Assembly: GCF_014197795.1 (NCBI RefSeq)
Contig: NZ_JACIGI010000008.1
Coordinates: 62,001-126,000 of the forward strand
Length of the DNA: 64,000 bases
Source of the DNA: Roseospira goensis
GTDB lineage: Bacteria > Pseudomonadota > Alphaproteobacteria > Rhodospirillales > Rhodospirillaceae
Direction of reading: 5' to 3'
The notes beneath the pieces were generated by a model. It worked only from the letters and a program-made list of their open reading frames with translations, ran no database searches and was not told the DNA's origin. The translations under genes and the position numbers were made by a program. Positions 447 through 12,000 of this stretch are shown in pieces (position 1 is the first letter of the stretch; the number at the start of each line of letters is the position of its first letter).

Positions 447-1058
447 CTAGTTGGCGCCCGCCTGGCCGCTCGCGGACAGCGTGGACGGATCGGGGAAGTC
501 GATCGACGGTAGGCGTTCGTTGAGCCGGGTCAGCACGGCGTCCGTCATTTCCATGCGCGGATCGAACAGCGGCACCTGGGAGCGGTAGAGCACCAGGTTG
601 ATGCCGCGCTCCGCCGCCACCTCGTCGGCGATGGCGGTCACCATCTGCTGGAATTCCGACAGGGCGATCGAAAGGGCGCGCTCCAGCTTGCGGCGGCGCT
701 CGCCCACCCGCTGCTCGAAGGCTGCAACCTTGCCGCGAAAGGCCCGGGCACGCTCTTCCATCTCGGGGGTCGGCGTCTGGTTGGGGCCGATCGCCAGGGT
801 GCGCTGTTCCTCGCGCAGCTTCTGTTCCTCGGCGGCGGTTTCCTTGTTGTAGGTCTCCAGATACGCCTGCCGGTCGCGATCCACCCCCTGCGCGGCGGTG
901 GACTCGCGCTGGATTCGCTGCATGTCGATGATCCCGATGGCCGCGTTCGGAAACGACTCCTGGGCGCGGGCATGGAGCGGCGGCAGCATGGCGGCCAGCG
1001 CCAGCGCGATCAGCAGGGCCGCCAGCGGCCGGCGCGGGACAGGAAACGACGGATGCAT
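447..1058 (-). CDS. skp: OmpH/Skp family periplasmic chaperone
   Basis: Periplasmic holdase chaperone of outer-membrane proteins (OmpH/Skp family), 203 aa. A signal peptide is evident (RRPLAALLIALALAAML followed by HARAQ, cleavage near residue 33). The mature part starts IGIIDMQRIQRES and continues as a charged, heptad-like helix (about residues 60-140, rich in E, K, R and Q), as expected for the tentacle helices. ATG 1058 is chosen because GAGG sits 5 nt upstream; ATG 1061 is immediately adjacent and possible. The longer open frame to 1247 is rejected because it enters a palindromic repeat and lacks coding character. It lies downstream of bamA on the same strand, the usual bamA-skp order, but the two are separated by about 500 bp of repeat DNA that may affect mRNA processing. 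Confidence 0.9.
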   Translation of the reverse strand: MHPSFPVPRRPLAALLIALALAAMLPPLHARAQESFPNAAIGIIDMQRIQRESTAAQGVDRDRQAYLETYNKETAAEEQKLREEQRTLAIGPNQTPTPEMEERARAFRGKVAAFEQRVGERRRKLERALSIALSEFQQMVTAIADEVAAERGINLVLYRSQVPLFDPRMEMTDAVLTRLNERLPSIDFPDPSTLSASGQAGAN

Positions 1059-1554
1059 CATCACCTCGGATCGACGGGGGTTCGACGGGGAGTCAACGGT
1101 GTGGGGGTGGGTGTGGGGGTGTCGGGCCGGCGGGACCGCGGCAGCCCGCCGCCGCGGCACTGTAGAGCCGATGGTTCGAAATTGGAACCGCGCGTTACAG
1201 CCGATTGCGACAAACCGGACTCGTGGCGCGAGTTCGGTATGTCGCAATAGAGCGGAACGCCCGAATACGGACTCGCATGGTGATTTCGAATTCGGGCGTT
1301 CCGCTCTGAAACCAACAGATCGCGCCGATTCACGCTCGAAATCGGCCCCACCCCGGTGGTTCCGACTTCGAGCGATCGGCGCTAATCGGCTGCGACTCTT
1401 CCATTTCGCGCGGAGTCACGTGATCAATCTGGACCATGGCGTGATTCAGTTCGATCACGATCTGCTGATCTGCTGTGGGTCCCCGTGCGCGCATGAGCCA
1501 CGGCGGGACGGTCCAGCCGGGCGGGGGCGGGCGCCGGAGGGATGCGGCCGCGGC
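1059..1554. other. Gene-free interval between bamA and skp
   Basis: This 496-bp gap inside an otherwise tight operon holds no plausible gene. Most of it is the composite palindromic element described at 1196-1460. The stretch 1085-1125 is a G/T-rich run of repeated GTGGG/GTGTGGG units just upstream of skp. No terminator with a T tract is visible. Confidence 0.6.
1196..1460 (+). repeat. Composite palindromic intergenic element, copy 1 (four hairpins)
   Basis: Four successive inverted repeats fill this gap. H1: 19-nt imperfect arms 1204-1222 and 1230-1248, core TTGCGAC/GTCGCAA. H2: perfect 18-bp arms 1249-1266 and 1290-1307. H3: arms 1322-1329 with 1375-1382 and 1336-1345 with 1362-1371. H4: CGTGATC 1419-1425 with GATCACG 1453-1459. 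An outer pair CAGCCGAT 1198-1205 and ATCGGCTG 1385-1392 encloses H1-H3. A second, shorter copy lies in opposite orientation at 10633-10769. Positions 1196-1231 match its reverse complement at 35 of 36 bases, and 1407-1429 at 22 of 23. Copy 2 lacks H2 and H3. The family resembles REP/mosaic intergenic elements, but I do not recognise a named one. Confidence 0.8.
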
Positions 1555-3870
1555 TCAGAAGCGGGATCCGAAGCTGATCCGGAACAGCTCTTCCTCGTCG
1601 TAGGACTGCTTGAGGATCGGGGTCGCAACCTCGACGTTGACGGGCCCGAGCGGGGAGGACCAGAGGACACCGATGCCGATCGACCCGCGCAGCGCGACGT
1701 CGTGGTCCAGGTCCTCGTCCGGGATGCCGTCCGGCTCGCCCGACAGACCCCAGTCGGTGAACACCTTGGCCCCCAGCCCCAACTCCTCAGGCAGGCCGAG
1801 GGGGAACCGGACCTCCAGGCTGCCGTCGGCCATCCAGTTGCCGCCGAGGGCATCGTCCGTGGCCGTGTCGCGCGGCGCAGCGCCCGAGGGCGCGAAACCG
1901 CGCAGGTTGTTGCCGCCCAGGAAATAGCGGTGGCGGATCGAGACGTCCTCGCCCAGTCCGAGGATGTAGCCCACATGGCCGCGCACCCCGACCACCCATT
2001 CGGGACTCCAGTTCATCTCGTCGCCGAGCGGATAGTGGTAGGAGGCGTCCACGTCGGTGCGCAGGAAGCGGGCATCGCCGCCCAGCCCGGCCAGGTCGTT
2101 GGCGATCTGGAGGCGGTAGCCTTCGGTCGGGATCAGGCGGGAATCGCGCGTGTCGTAGGTGAGCGAGTGCCCGATCATGGACAGCACCTCGACGCCTTCC
2201 TGCTCCTTGATGAACAGGGATGCGTCGTCCTCGACGTCGAAGATGTCCTGGCGTTGCAGCGTGTACTTGAAGTCGTGGCGCCAGCGGCTCGAATAGCGGT
2301 AGCCGAAGCGCAGCGAGGCGCCTTGCAGACGCACCTGGTGGGAGCTTTCGTCCTCCAGGTCGCGCTCGATCGCGAACAGGTCGAAGCCGGCGGAGATCGG
2401 CCGATCCAGGAAGTACGGTTCGGTGAAGCTCAAATCCAGCTCGGTCCGGCGCTCGGCCCAGCTCAGGCGGGCCGATAGGTCCTGACCCCGGCCCAGGAGG
2501 TTGCGCTCCCGCACGCCGACCTCGACCATGGCGCCCAGGTTCGACGACCAGCCGACGCCGAACGACAACTCGCCGGTGGACTGCTCCTCGACCTCGACGT
2601 TGATGACCGTGCGGTCGGGCTTGTCGATGACCGGTTCGTTGGTCACCTCGACGGTCTCGAAGAAGCCCAAGTCGCGGATGCGCTGACGCGAGCGGCGCAG
2701 CTTGGCGGAGTTGAAGGCGTCGCCCTCGACGAGCTGGATCTCGCGGCGGATGACCTCGTCGAGGGTGCGCACGTTGCCCTCGATCTCGATGCGCTCGACG
2801 AACACCCGCGGTCCTTCGCGCACGTCGAAGGTGAGGTTGATGACGTTGGCCTCGCGGTCGCGCTCCACCTGCGGGCGCACATCCACAAAGGCGTAGCCGA
2901 GCGCCCCCACGCTCTGGGTGATGTTCTGGACCGTCTCCTCGATGCGCTCGGCATCGTACCAGTCGCCTTCCTCGATCTCCAGGGACGGCCGCAGCAACTC
3001 GGGCGTCAGGTCCTCCAGCGAGGTCTGGATGTCGACACTGCCGACGCGGTAGCGGTCGCCCTCGTCCACGGTGAAGGTGATGAAGAAGCTCTCGCGGGCC
3101 GGCGTCAGCTCGGCGACGGCCGAGCGCACCTCGAAGTCGGCATAGCCGTTCGACAGGTAGAATCGGCGCAGCAGTTCGCGGTCGAAGGTCAGGCGATCCG
3201 GATCGAAGGTGTCGGAGCTGCTGAGCAGGCGGTACCAGCGTTCTTCCTTGGTGGCGATGACCTCGCGCAGGCTGGAGTCGCTGAAGGCCGTGTTGCCCAC
3301 GAAGGTGATGCGACGCACGTAGGTTGCGGGGCCTTCGTCGATCTCGAACACCAGGTCGACCCGGTTCTGCGGCAGTTCGATGATCTTCGGGTCCACGGCC
3401 ACGGCGTAGCGGCCGGAGCGGCGGTAGACCTCCAGGATCCGCTTGACGTCCTCCTGGACCTTGGCCCGGGTGTAGACCACGCGGGGGCGGAGTTGCACCT
3501 CGCGCGCCAGGGTTTCGTTCTCGATGCGCTTGTTTCCCTCGAAGGCGACCCGGTTGATGATCGGGTTCTCGACCACGACCACGACCAGATCGTTGCCCTC
3601 GCGGCGCAGCGATACGTCGGCGAACAGGCCGGTGCCGAACAGCGCCTTCAGCGACTGGTCGATCGCCTCTCTGTCGAACGAATCGCCTTCCGTGACGCGC
3701 AGGTAGGTGCGGATGGTGTCGGGTTCGATGCGCTGCGCGCCCTCGACCAGAATGCGTTCAACGACAGGCGTTCCCTGGGCGCGCACCAGTCCGGTGCCGC
3801 CGATCAGGGTCATGACGACCACCGCCACCGCAAGCAGCAGCGGGGAGAGACCTGTGCACCGCGCTCTCAA
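1555..3870 (-). CDS. bamA: Outer-membrane protein assembly factor BamA
   Basis: Omp85-family outer-membrane insertase of the BAM complex, 771 aa, the usual length. A signal peptide (LLLAVAVVVMTLIGG, then VRAQG) is followed by five POTRA domains (about residues 35-375; repeated strands such as VERILVEGAQRI, NRVAFEGNKRI, VRRITFVGNTAF, VERIEIEGNVRT). A C-terminal 16-strand barrel ends in aromatic FRISFGSRF, a typical terminal beta-signal. The loop-6 motif reads LRGF (residues NNLRGFAPSG), a mild variant of VRGF. The start is TTG 3870: GGGGGG lies 5 nt upstream. An out-of-frame ATG-CGT-TGA mini-frame overlaps the TTG and is probably not used. It follows rseP with 56 bp of AT-rich spacer, which may hold a separate promoter. 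Confidence 0.96.
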   Translation of the reverse strand: MRARCTGLSPLLLAVAVVVMTLIGGTGLVRAQGTPVVERILVEGAQRIEPDTIRTYLRVTEGDSFDREAIDQSLKALFGTGLFADVSLRREGNDLVVVVVENPIINRVAFEGNKRIENETLAREVQLRPRVVYTRAKVQEDVKRILEVYRRSGRYAVAVDPKIIELPQNRVDLVFEIDEGPATYVRRITFVGNTAFSDSSLREVIATKEERWYRLLSSSDTFDPDRLTFDRELLRRFYLSNGYADFEVRSAVAELTPARESFFITFTVDEGDRYRVGSVDIQTSLEDLTPELLRPSLEIEEGDWYDAERIEETVQNITQSVGALGYAFVDVRPQVERDREANVINLTFDVREGPRVFVERIEIEGNVRTLDEVIRREIQLVEGDAFNSAKLRRSRQRIRDLGFFETVEVTNEPVIDKPDRTVINVEVEEQSTGELSFGVGWSSNLGAMVEVGVRERNLLGRGQDLSARLSWAERRTELDLSFTEPYFLDRPISAGFDLFAIERDLEDESSHQVRLQGASLRFGYRYSSRWRHDFKYTLQRQDIFDVEDDASLFIKEQEGVEVLSMIGHSLTYDTRDSRLIPTEGYRLQIANDLAGLGGDARFLRTDVDASYHYPLGDEMNWSPEWVVGVRGHVGYILGLGEDVSIRHRYFLGGNNLRGFAPSGAAPRDTATDDALGGNWMADGSLEVRFPLGLPEELGLGAKVFTDWGLSGEPDGIPDEDLDHDVALRGSIGIGVLWSSPLGPVNVEVATPILKQSYDEEELFRISFGSRF

Positions 3871-9605: not shown

Positions 9606-10532
9606 CTACTTGTTGAGCTGCTGCGCCACCTCGGCGGCGAAGTCCTTGTCTTCCTTCTCGATGCCTTCGCCAAGGTTGAAGCGGACGAAGCCGGCGAGCG
9701 TGACCGGGGCGCCCATGTCCTTGCCGGCCGCCTCGACCACTTTGCCGACCTTGCTCTCGTTGTCCATGACGTAGGTCTGGTCGAGCAGGCAGACTTCCTC
9801 GTAGAACTTGCGCAGGCGCCCCTCGACCATCTTTTCAATGATGTTCTCGGGCTTGCCGGACTCGCGCGCCTGCTCGGTGAGAACGGCGCGCTCGCGGTCG
9901 AGTGCCGCGGTGTCCACCTCGTCGCGGGTCAGGTACTGCGGGGCCGCGGCGGCGACGTGCATGGCGATGCTCTTGCCCAGCTCGGCCAGCTTGGCCGCAT
10001 CGCCGGCGGACTCCAGCGCCACCAGCACGCCGATGCGGCCCAGGCCCGGGCGCACCGCGTTGTGCACGTAGCCGGCGACGATGCCCTGGCCCACCTCCAG
10101 GCGCGCGGCGCGGCGCAGGTTCATGTTCTCGCCGATGGTGGCGACCTGGTGGGTCAGCTCCTCCTCGACCGTGCGGTCGGTGCCCGGATAGGGCTTGCCC
10201 TTGAGCGCCTCGATGTCGGCCCCCTCGGTCAACGCCAGCTTGGCCAGGGTCTCGACGAGATCCTGGAAGGTCTCGTTGCGGGCGACGAAGTCGGTCTCGG
10301 CGTTCAGCTCCAGGGCGGCGCCGCGGGTGCCGTCGGTGGTCACCGCGACCAGGCCCTCGGCGGCGACGCGGCCGGCCTTCTTGGCGGCGGCGGCGAGGCC
10401 CTTCTTGCGCAGCCAGTCCACGGCCGCGTCGAGGTCGCCGTCGGTTTCCTTCAGCGCCTTCTTGCAGTCCATCATGCCCGCGCCGGTCTTTTCGCGCAGG
10501 TCCTTGACCAGGGAGGCGGTGATCTCGGCCAT
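9606..10532 (-). CDS. tsf: Elongation factor Ts
   Basis: Guanine nucleotide exchange factor for EF-Tu, 308 aa, typical length. The N-terminal signature [27 protein letters not shown] is complete (UBA-like domain with the [12 protein letters not shown] motif). The core has [14 protein letters not shown] and the C-terminal dimerisation region ends VAQQLNK. ATG 10532 is fixed by homology; the frame extending to 10649 reads into repeat DNA. It follows rpsB but is separated from it by a 385-bp gap that contains a palindromic element. Confidence 0.97.
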
Positions 10533-10917
10533 GACTAGTCCTCTTCGTTGGCGATGATCCGGTCGGTGCCGCCTCCGGCGCGGCACCGCCTGTCGTATCT
10601 CCGATGTCGCCGGCCTGGCGATCGGTCTCTTAGCGCGGATCGCGATCAATCGGAACCACGATGTGGTTCGGATTGATCGCGTGACTCCGCGCGACCTATA
10701 TGATTCTCAGCCGATTTTTGCGGCAAACTGAAATCGCGCCGCGAGTCCGGTTTGTCGCAATCGGCTGTAGCTGTCGCCGGGGCGGCGACCCCTCTCGTCT
10801 CCTGTCGCCGGCGTGGCGACGGGATCGGGCAGGTCCGGGCGCGGGGACGCCCCTCAAACACCTAAAACAATGGCGGCAACCGTGGTCGCCGCCATCGTCG
10901 GTGCCGGCCCGGCGGGC
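10533..10917. other. Gene-free interval between rpsB and tsf
   Basis: This 385-bp gap holds no credible gene. It contains the palindromic element at 10633-10769 and, at 10770-10815, repeated CGCCGG/GTCGCC-type GC-rich units that can pair with each other (CTGTCGCCGGGGCGGCGAC and CCTGTCGCCGGCGTGGCGAC). These may act as a terminator-like structure downstream of rpsB. Frames crossing it lack coding character. Confidence 0.6.
10633..10769 (-). repeat. Composite palindromic intergenic element, copy 2 (two hairpins)
   Basis: Reverse-oriented, shorter relative of the element at 1196-1460. One hairpin pairs 10641-10659 with 10663-10681 (18 of 19 bases, 3-nt loop), extended by GCGCGGA/TCCGCGC outside. 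The second pairs TTGCGGCAAAC (10718-10728) with GTTTGTCGCAA (10750-10760), extended by CAGCCGAT 10708-10715 and ATCGGCTG 10760-10767. The outer arms are the same sequence that encloses the extra hairpins in copy 1. It lies in the rpsB-tsf gap; transcripts of this operon would carry both stems. Confidence 0.8.
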
Positions 10918-11766
10918 TCAGCCGGCGGCGGTTTCGCCGGCCTGCGTCTCACCGGCGGGAGCGGTCGTTTCCGCTCCGGCCTCGGCGGGGGCCTCGCCCG
11001 TCGCCTCCGCGTCGTCCTCGACGGCGGGTTCGGACACCTGCTCCATGGCGCCCACGTCCACGCCGGCGGCGGTCATCTCAGCGTGGATGCCGTCCAGAGC
11101 GGCGCCGCTGATCAGCTCGCAATAGGTCTGGATGGCGCGGATGGCGTCATCGTTGCCGGGGATCGGGAACGACACGCCGTCCGGGTCGCTGTTGCTGTCC
11201 AGCACCGCGACGACCGGGATGCCGAGCTTGTTGGCCTCGTTGACGGCGAGGTCTTCCTTGACCGTGTCGATGATGAAGAGGATGTCGGGCAGCCCGCCCA
11301 TCTCCTTGATGCCGCCCAGGGCCAGGTCCAGCTTGTCCTTCTCGCGGTTGAGGTTCAGCAGTTCCTTCTTGGTCAGCGCCGACAGCTCACCCGAGTCCAG
11401 CTTGTCCTCCAGTTCCCGCAGGCGCCGGATGGAGTGCGAGATGGTCTTCCAGTTCGTCAGCATGCCGCCGAGCCAGCGGTGGTTGACGTAATACTGGCCG
11501 CAACGCCGCGCGCCGTCCGCCACGATCTCCTGCGCCTGGCGCTTGGTGCCCACGAACAGCACGCGGCCGCCGCCGGCGACCACCTCGCGCACCGCCTGCA
11601 TGGCGCGGTGCATCAGCGGGACGGTCTGCTGGAGGTCGATGATGTGCACGTTGTCGCGCACCCCGAACAGGTACGGGGCCATCTTGGGGTTCCAGCGACG
11701 GGTGTTGTGTCCGAAGTGGCAGCCGGCCTCGATGAGCTGGCGCATGGTGAAGCTGGGCATCGTCAT
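10918..11766 (-). CDS. rpsB: 30S ribosomal protein S2
   Basis: Ribosomal protein S2, 282 aa. The N-terminus [20 protein letters not shown] matches the family, as do [40 protein letters not shown] and the C-terminal [18 protein letters not shown]. After about residue 235 it carries an acidic Ala/Glu/Thr tail, as in many alphaproteobacterial S2 proteins. ATG 11766 has GAGG upstream, and ATG 11760 is a close alternative. It begins the rpsB-tsf-pyrH-frr block. The long overlapping frame to 12691 is a shadow of the neighbouring gene. Confidence 0.96.
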
Positions 11767-12000
11767 GAGACGCGAATCCTCGGTCTTTTCCGGTTGGGCC
11801 GCCGCGGGACATGAGCCGGTCCAGCGGGCCGCCCAGGGGCGGCGCCGCCATGCCGACACCGGAACGACCCGCTGACCCCTTCCGTCGTGGACGGAACGGT
11901 GCCCGGGCCGCGCTCCCGCGTGTGGGTTGGTGGGCGGGTTCTAACGTCTCACAGGGCGCTTGACAAGGCCCTACGGGCTGGTGTCGCGGGGCCACGGTCC

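What the first reader, a model, noticed from the sequence alone, without database searches (positions are those of the whole stretch)
1196..1460. Composite palindromic intergenic element in two orientations inside core operons
Directly seen: the gap between bamA and skp holds four consecutive inverted repeats. A shorter reverse-oriented relative lies at 10633-10769 in the rpsB-tsf gap. Shared blocks match at 35/36 bases (1196-1231) and 22/23 bases (1407-1429). In copy 1 the outer arms CAGCCGAT/ATCGGCTG have two extra hairpins (1249-1382) between them that copy 2 lacks, as if one palindromic module were inserted into another. REP/BIME-type elements in other bacteria are known to affect mRNA stability and to move with RAYT transposases. 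I infer a mobile, modular, non-autonomous family here.
Basis: partly seen in the sequence, partly recalled or inferred. Interest (0 to 1): 0.75.

Follow-up and report, generated by a model that had tools for sequence, protein, structure and literature searches.

The report
Stop-codon-landing palindromic mobile elements
The two odd intergenic palindromes are copies of a small, gene-less mobile element, one nested inside another, that lands on short TA sites (often a gene's own stop codon, leaving the gene intact) and whose ends resemble those of a group of bacterial transposons carrying a cell-cycle DNA-methylation motif at a fixed position.

Summary
Window 1196-1468 is a two-hairpin element with a second one (1248-1384), free-standing elsewhere, inserted in it; 10631-10769 is an uninterrupted copy. 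I counted 187 distinct hairpins in fetched stretches (about 9%) of this genome; a hairpin model also matches five of six congeners and 17 of 289 sampled alphaproteobacterial genomes. The architecture (hairpin, linker, inverted hairpin, TA ends, GANTC) is that of Caulobacter CIR repeats, whose mobility a 2007 review left open. New here: target Y-TA-R with TA doubled; 30 of 68 two-hairpin elements lie exactly on a gene's stop codon, rebuilt by the element's terminal TAG; an IS630 group in Alphaproteobacteria has the same TAGAGC ends, the same YTAR target (19 of 19 copies) and GANTC at positions 23-27 of its left end (15 of 15 distinct), where 56 of 65 elements carry it. The RAYT idea is not supported: the genome's one Y1 gene has its own, different repeat. 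Best reading: CIR-type satellites (MITEs) of an IS630 group. Against: no IS630 gene found in this genome, end similarity is short, no movement observed; a role of CcrM methylation is inference.

The parts
1196..1247 (+). outer element, left-end hairpin up to the insertion point (starts TACAGCC; GANTC at its position 23 = 1218-1222)
   Evidence: sequence, model hit 1206-1246, GANTC list
1248..1384 (+). inner two-hairpin element, nested in the outer one; TA copies at 1248-1249 and 1383-1384
   Evidence: free-standing copies at 88-99% identity elsewhere
1248..1308 (+). inner hairpin P1 (left-end type, GANTC at position 23 = 1270-1274)
   Evidence: model R1 hit, E 1.4e-9
1320..1384 (-). inner hairpin P2 (right-end type, GANTC 1327-1331 at its bulge)
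   Evidence: model R1 hit, E 1.7e-17
1385..1392 (+). rest of the outer hairpin P1 (ATCGGCTG), split off by the insertion
   Evidence: sequence; uninserted copies
1393..1405 (+). outer linker (contains GACTC 1394-1398)
   Evidence: sequence
1406..1468 (-). outer hairpin P2; its right arm is diverged or of another subfamily and its terminal TA is lost
   Evidence: model R1 hit, E 3e-9
10631..10769 (-). second copy of the outer element, uninterrupted, reverse orientation, TA at both ends
   Evidence: sequence, blast family
10631..10694 (+). copy 2 hairpin P2
   Evidence: model R1 hit, E 2.1e-19
10706..10769 (-). copy 2 hairpin P1 (GANTC at position 23 from its TA end = 10743-10747)
   Evidence: model R1 hit, E 1.9e-13
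1555..3828 (-). bamA, upstream gene of the first gap
   Evidence: TIGR03303 E 5.2e-230
447..1061 (-). skp/ompH, downstream gene of the first gap (start inferred)
   Evidence: PF03938 E 2.6e-18; no NCBIfam match
9606..10532 (-). tsf
   Evidence: TIGR00116 E 8.5e-101
10918..11859 (-). rpsB (start as listed ORF)
   Evidence: TIGR01011 E 1.8e-97

Best explanation
These are CIR-type miniature transposable elements: two inverted hairpins of about 64 nt joined by a short linker. They insert into Y-TA-R sites, doubling the TA, and were most likely mobilised in trans by an IS630-type (Tc1/mariner-like DDE) transposase whose own transposon has the same TAGAGC ends, target and left-end GANTC. Most ends read TAG, so an insertion into the TA of a TAA or TAG stop codon rebuilds a TAG stop at once and the gene stays intact; this helps explain why so many copies sit at gene 3' ends. 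In the window, an inner-subfamily copy landed on the TA in the bulge of an outer copy's hairpin. Shown: the sequence family, nesting, target, TA doubling (by comparing filled and unfilled repeat copies), stop-codon positions, shared ends. Inferred: which transposase moved them, and any role of CcrM methylation at the GANTC.
For: Nesting: the window copy and L002 in one orientation and L018 in the other lie at GC(A/G)A-TA-ATCGGCTG; L030, by another subfamily, at the same place with a diverged right side. Unfilled copies read CGCGATAATCGGCTG (15) or CGCAATAATCGGCTG (L046). Target: in 41 two-hairpin elements with TA at both ends the symmetrised base at -1 is C 48%, T 39%, A 11%, G 2%; for the 20 not on a stop codon G is 0 of 40 although the window is 71% GC. 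Stop codons: 45 of 132 neighbouring gene 3' ends stop exactly at the element's first bases, 5 inside it, where random in-gene insertion would give about 1:2 (inference for the ratio); 32 sides, i.e. 30 of 68 two-hairpin clusters. Genes look intact: in 8 of 20 proteins tested (of 44 sides) a model matched to within 2 positions of its end stops within 5 residues of the protein end (infC, purB, tolB, pyk, proA, metY, proX and a RhtB-type exporter, the last below its model's cut-off). L005 and L146 carry the stops of two convergent genes on one element. IS630: TAGAGC at both ends in 18 of 52 IS630 loci, 12 of 36 genomes; no other of 256 TA-words exceeds 3 genomes; shuffles mean 0.64 loci, maximum 4. 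YTAR flanks in 19 of 19 copies. GANTC at 23-27 in 15 of 15 distinct left ends and 0 of 15 right ends, against 56 of 65 elements here and 12 of 27 elsewhere in the class with automatic boundaries.
Against: No PF13358 (IS630) match in this genome, nor in 5 of 16 hairpin-carrying genomes of other genera. Co-occurrence is not shown: in the 27 genomes of one draw that had strong IS630 matches, TAGAGC-ended copies were found in 3 of 4 with hairpin matches and 6 of 23 without (Fisher p 0.09). Beyond TAGAGC and GANTC the ends are only loosely alike, and two end subfamilies here start TACAGC and TAGCGC. A left/right profile without the GANTC columns agrees for 46 of 55 own elements (few subfamilies, not independent) but goes the other way for the G003 subfamily. 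TA doubling cannot by itself be told from an element that carries TA at one end and needs TA in the target. The stop-codon excess over available non-genic YTAR sites is modest and rests on few sites (30 of 68 against 2 of 15, Fisher p 0.04). No orthologous empty site was fetched.
Confidence: 0.8

Rival explanations
1. REP/BIME-like elements moved by a RAYT (Y1, single-strand hairpin) transposase.
For: Inverted hairpin pairs at gene 3' ends, stems with a bulge, one RAYT-like gene in the genome, and one weak hairpin-model match (21.5 bits) beside the Y1 gene of congener G005 (L085).
Against: The genome's Y1 gene has its own GTAG repeat and no model match beside it; G precedes the TA in only 2% of 82 ends; Y1 presence does not follow the number of model matches among congeners.
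Confidence: 0.07
2. Elements are not mobile now; they are 3'-UTR hairpins (mRNA stabilisers or attenuators) kept by selection and spread long ago.
For: Positions in the bamA-skp and rpsB-tsf gaps and at gene 3' ends; strong folding.
Against: Near-identical copies within one species, no match in the 34 other genera of a 41-genome search at sequence level, nesting in both orientations. Does not exclude a secondary RNA role.
Confidence: 0.08
3. The fixed GANTC is only part of the transposase-binding site or of the transposase promoter, not a methylation switch.
For: It is on the left end only, upstream of the gene. CcrM effects were not tested.
Against: Satellites with no gene to control keep it (56 of 65). 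All four N occur among 15 distinct IS left ends (A 12, T 1, G 1, C 1), as expected of GANTC. IS630 elements with another end type (TACC, 3 of 3 loci) have a left-end GANTC at 21-25 and none on the right; 6 of 6 other IS630 elements examined, 4 of them from genomes under 2 Mb, have none on the left.
Confidence: 0.5

Closest known systems
CIR (Caulobacter CcrM-associated intergenic repeats; Chen and Shapiro 2003, not held; known here through passages of Delihas 2007, PMC2229807)
   Same: Intergenic, two long inverted repeats joined by a linker, TA at the termini, GANTC at or near the loop of one hairpin, Alphaproteobacteria.
   Different: Elements here are about 137-139 bp against about 110; nesting and mosaic hairpins; target, TA doubling, stop-codon landing and IS630-like ends are shown here, where that review's table gives TIR '-' and TSD '?' for CIR. 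Sequences could not be compared.
IS630 family transposons, TAGAGC-ended group
   Same: Terminal TAGAGC, YTAR target, GANTC at 23-27 of the left end.
   Different: About 1.05 kb with a DDE_3 transposase; no hairpin-model match in 7 IS630 loci tested.
RUP of Streptococcus pneumoniae, Correia/NEMIS, ERIC (TA-inserting MITEs; PMC2229807, passages)
   Same: Small gene-less elements with TA ends; RUP is proposed to be moved by IS630-Spn1.
   Different: One stem formed by the two ends rather than two hairpins with a linker; no GANTC noted there.
REP/BIME with RAYT (recalled)
   Same: Inverted pairs of hairpins at gene ends.
   Different: No GTAG foot, TA doubling, no matching RAYT.
RIME of rhizobia (recalled; only a search listing seen)
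   Same: Recalled as a roughly 108-bp element with two large palindromes.
   Different: Sequences not compared.

Membership tests
CIR-type repeats | two long inverted repeats joined by a linker | tested here: met
   65 of 68 two-hairpin clusters are head-to-head; 91.8% of cells paired and 15 of 28 pairs with two-sided change in 7 hand-picked seeds
CIR-type repeats | GANTC motif near the loop of a hairpin | tested here: met
   56 of 65 elements at position 23 from an end
CIR-type repeats | TA at the termini, intergenic | tested here: met
   41 of the 65 head-to-head elements keep TA at both ends; gene ends at or before the element in 127 of 132 cases
CIR-type repeats | sequence homology to published CIR1-4 | not testable with these tools
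   the 2003 paper is not held
CIR-type repeats | host has CcrM | tested here: met
   N6_N4_Mtase and RAMA domains over cut-off; CcrM model E 9e-188 but 623 bits against a cut-off of 830
IS630-derived MITE | ends shared with an IS630 transposon | tested here: met
   TAGAGC and GANTC at 23-27; short, and end subfamilies TACAGC and TAGCGC deviate
IS630-derived MITE | TA target duplicated | tested here: met
   nested copies against unfilled copies; TA at both ends in 41 of 65
IS630-derived MITE | cognate transposase in the same genome | tested here: not met
   no PF13358 match in G000; congeners have 1-3 each
REP/BIME-RAYT | RAYT gene flanked by the same repeat | tested here: not met
   own repeat beside L083, no model match there; a weak match beside the Y1 gene of G005
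REP/BIME-RAYT | GTAG at the foot of the hairpin (recalled) | tested here: not met
   G at -1 in 2% of 82 ends

The most novel reading that the evidence does not exclude
An alphaproteobacterial IS630 group and its palindromic satellites are wired to the host cell cycle: a CcrM site at a fixed place in the left end licenses transposition on hemimethylated, just-replicated DNA, and a YTAR target rebuilt as TAG lets the elements settle on stop codons without harm. This would be the CcrM counterpart of Dam control of IS10 and IS50 (recalled) and would explain what the GANTC of CIR repeats is for.
Probability: 0.35. Interest if true: 0.82.

Novelty: new member of a known kind. Interest (0 to 1): 0.66.

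Why it matters
CIR repeats were described in 2003; [quoted passage not shown] The shared ends, target rule and fixed GANTC give a concrete enzyme and a licensing hypothesis to test, and a simple route by which gene-less elements reach gene 3' ends without breaking genes.

Tried and rejected
RAYT partner: not supported, see rivals. A multi-copy transposon found beside single hairpins at contig ends (L060, L147, L096) looked like the autonomous partner; the 20 fetched junctions show it mostly in short A/T-rich runs, only a few of them in these elements, so I take it as an unrelated IS. Rfam: no match in the window at gathering scores. Fuzzy TIR search on IS630 loci: not significant alone (17 of 30 shuffled loci also gave a hit at 14 of 22), so I rely on the TAGAGC word test; the ends needed 16 of 22 matches, a threshold without its own shuffle control. 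G.T against A.C pairs in stems (194 and 122) did not settle DNA against RNA selection. Genome-contig pattern scan: 7 stretches, 2 in Rhodospira; the other 5, in unrelated organisms, were not examined. Paper searches for a link between IS630 or transposon ends and CcrM/GANTC: searches (2 papers; PMC9296519 passages incidental, PMC4592238 listing only; 3 papers; listing, PMC2229807 passages; 0 papers) showed no such link. A search on IS630, stop codon, CTAG and MITE (10 of 45 listed) led to MITEPsy1 of Pseudomonas, which duplicates CTAG or YTAA and is likened to an IS5-type element (PMC3189936, passages). Searches on palindromes or MITEs at stop codons listed 11 papers, of which I read passages of PMC2229807 only. 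Ten paper searches in all.

Full report
What is there. The bamA-skp gap holds an outer two-hairpin element (1196-1468) split by a complete inner two-hairpin element (1248-1384); the rpsB-tsf gap holds an uninterrupted outer copy (10631-10769, reverse). Each element is hairpin P1, a linker of about 11-13 nt and hairpin P2, the two hairpins being inverted relatives of one 64-nt unit with TA ends and, in most, a 3-nt bulge. Seven hand-picked hairpins from two species keep 91.8% of cells paired with 15 of 28 pairs changed on both sides; no shuffle of 500 reached either value.

Copies. Blast in the window's genome (4.18 Mb, 81 contigs) found the inner module at 19 further full-length places besides L002 and the outer element at 20. 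The hairpin model R1 gives 150 matches there (a cap), 68 in G003, 30 in G006, 20 in G004, 9 in G002, 6 in G001, none in G005 and none in three other genera tested, at E 0.01; these are matches, and one palindrome can match on both strands. From fetched stretches, using the 150 best matches of each of two searches, I counted 187 distinct, non-overlapping hairpins in 111 clusters: 68 with two hairpins (65 head-to-head, 3 in tandem), 39 with one, 4 with three. Many of the 39 are two-hairpin elements whose weaker hairpin fell below the cap. In 289 genomes drawn from the class 17 (own included) have matches, in 14 of 224 genera, with stricter filters.

Nesting and target. The inner element lies at the TA of the outer hairpin's bulge in the window and in L002, reversed at the same TA in L018, and a third subfamily does nearly the same in L030. 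Unfilled outer copies have that TA (15 by a strict pattern; L046). In 41 two-hairpin elements with TA at both ends the target is Y-TA-R. YTAR is rare: 23 sites in the 64-kb window outside the elements, 2 in stop codons, 13 intergenic, 8 in genes, by a simple GC3-based gene call.

Stop codons. With the same kind of gene call, 45 of 132 gene 3' ends near elements stop exactly on the element's first three bases, 5 inside the element, 13 within 30 bp before it and 69 further off; of the 32 such sides in two-hairpin clusters 31 read TAG and 1 TAA. Genes ending more than 30 bp away from such clusters use TGA 31, TAG 5, TAA 1. Of 44 such sides in all clusters I tested 20 proteins: in 8 a model, matched to within 2 positions of its end, stops within 5 residues of the protein's end; L17 and CcrM match their models to the end but have tails of 25 and 45 residues; the other 10 have no model that decides. 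ccrM itself ends on an element (L105). In L005 and L146 one element supplies the stop of two convergent genes, which before insertion would have shared one TA. Elsewhere in the class 16 of 27 fetched hairpins have an open frame of 60 or more codons ending on their TAG, in 9 of which it is also the longest candidate. Against availability (2 of 15 non-genic YTAR sites in the window) the excess is 30 of 68, Fisher p 0.04; so the target rule, tolerance and perhaps selection together may suffice.

Who moves them. The genome has one Y1 match, with its own repeats, and no IS630 match. All six congeners have PF13358 matches, five over the cut-off. Among 52 IS630 loci from 36 genomes, 18 loci in 12 genomes have TAGAGC at both ends 950-1120 bp apart; no other of 256 TA-words exceeds 3 genomes; shuffles give 0.64 loci on average, at most 4. 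Many of these loci came from genomes chosen for having hairpins. In the one draw not so chosen, TAGAGC-ended copies occur in 3 of 4 genomes with hairpin matches and 6 of 23 without, p 0.09. A nineteenth copy (L239, one base off in the left end) was added for the end analysis. All 19 are flanked YTAR. Of 15 distinct left ends (L239 counted as one) all 15 have GANTC at 23-27 with N = A 12, T 1, G 1, C 1, while positions 7-22 are variable; 0 of 15 right ends have it there, though 4 distinct right ends have one at 8-12. Three loci with another end type (TACC) have a left-end GANTC at 21-25 counted from that TA; four elements from genomes under 2 Mb, one TATCGTC and one TACAAT element have none on the left; L228, whose right end is degenerate, has it at 23. 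In the window's genome 56 of 65 elements have GANTC at 23 from an end, 55 on one end only. With automatic boundaries 12 of 27 class-wide elements, in 9 of 15 genomes, do too; several second hairpins were mis-bounded and a few more appear by eye. Left/right profiles without the GANTC columns agree for 46 of 55 own elements but not for G003.

A hypervariable base. In 20 inner copies at 91% identity or more, every one of 137 columns has at most 3 minor bases except two, the N of the two GANTC motifs: C 11: A 9, and G 11: T 8 with one copy (L017) lacking the second motif through a deletion. The combinations are CG 6, CT 4, AG 5, AT 4 (the one row dropped beforehand is L019, 89% identical). A/C at N recurs in 5 of 6 hairpin clusters of this genome but in neither of the two clusters of the other species. 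N free within a kept GANTC fits a methylation site; why only A and C are common is unexplained.

Limits. Gene calls are heuristic, elements are related by descent, the seed set was chosen by hand, and one assembly from unknown reads was used. The function of CcrM at these sites, transposition and RNA effects were not tested.

Noticed in passing
inner element columns 25 and 82 (window 1272 and 1329): The N of both GANTC motifs is close to 50:50 A/C (or G/T) among 20 near-identical copies, in all four combinations, while all other columns are nearly invariant.
   Followed up: partly
L137 1167-1197, L140 1185-1215, L148 2604-2634: Three loci share a P2 shortened to the same 31-nt hairpin, so a deletion derivative that lost the inner stem seems to have moved as well.
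   Followed up: no
L178-L197: A multi-copy transposon (end GGTTCATCACGGAATTCC) sits mostly in short A/T-rich runs, including parts of these elements, and marks many contig ends.
   Followed up: partly
L083 1354-1923 (-): RAYT-like Y1 gene flanked by its own GTAGGTTGGGGTGAGCG repeats; congener locus L084 is similar.
   Followed up: partly
L085 1993-2052: A repeat beside the Y1 gene of congener G005 weakly matches the hairpin model (21.5 bits); whether this is chance or a link between the two kinds of repeat is open.
   Followed up: no
L036, L025, L022, L120: Hybrid and tandem elements joining hairpins or hairpin halves of different subfamilies.
   Followed up: no
L105 715-1914 (+): The ccrM gene itself ends on the TAG of one of these elements.
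   Followed up: partly
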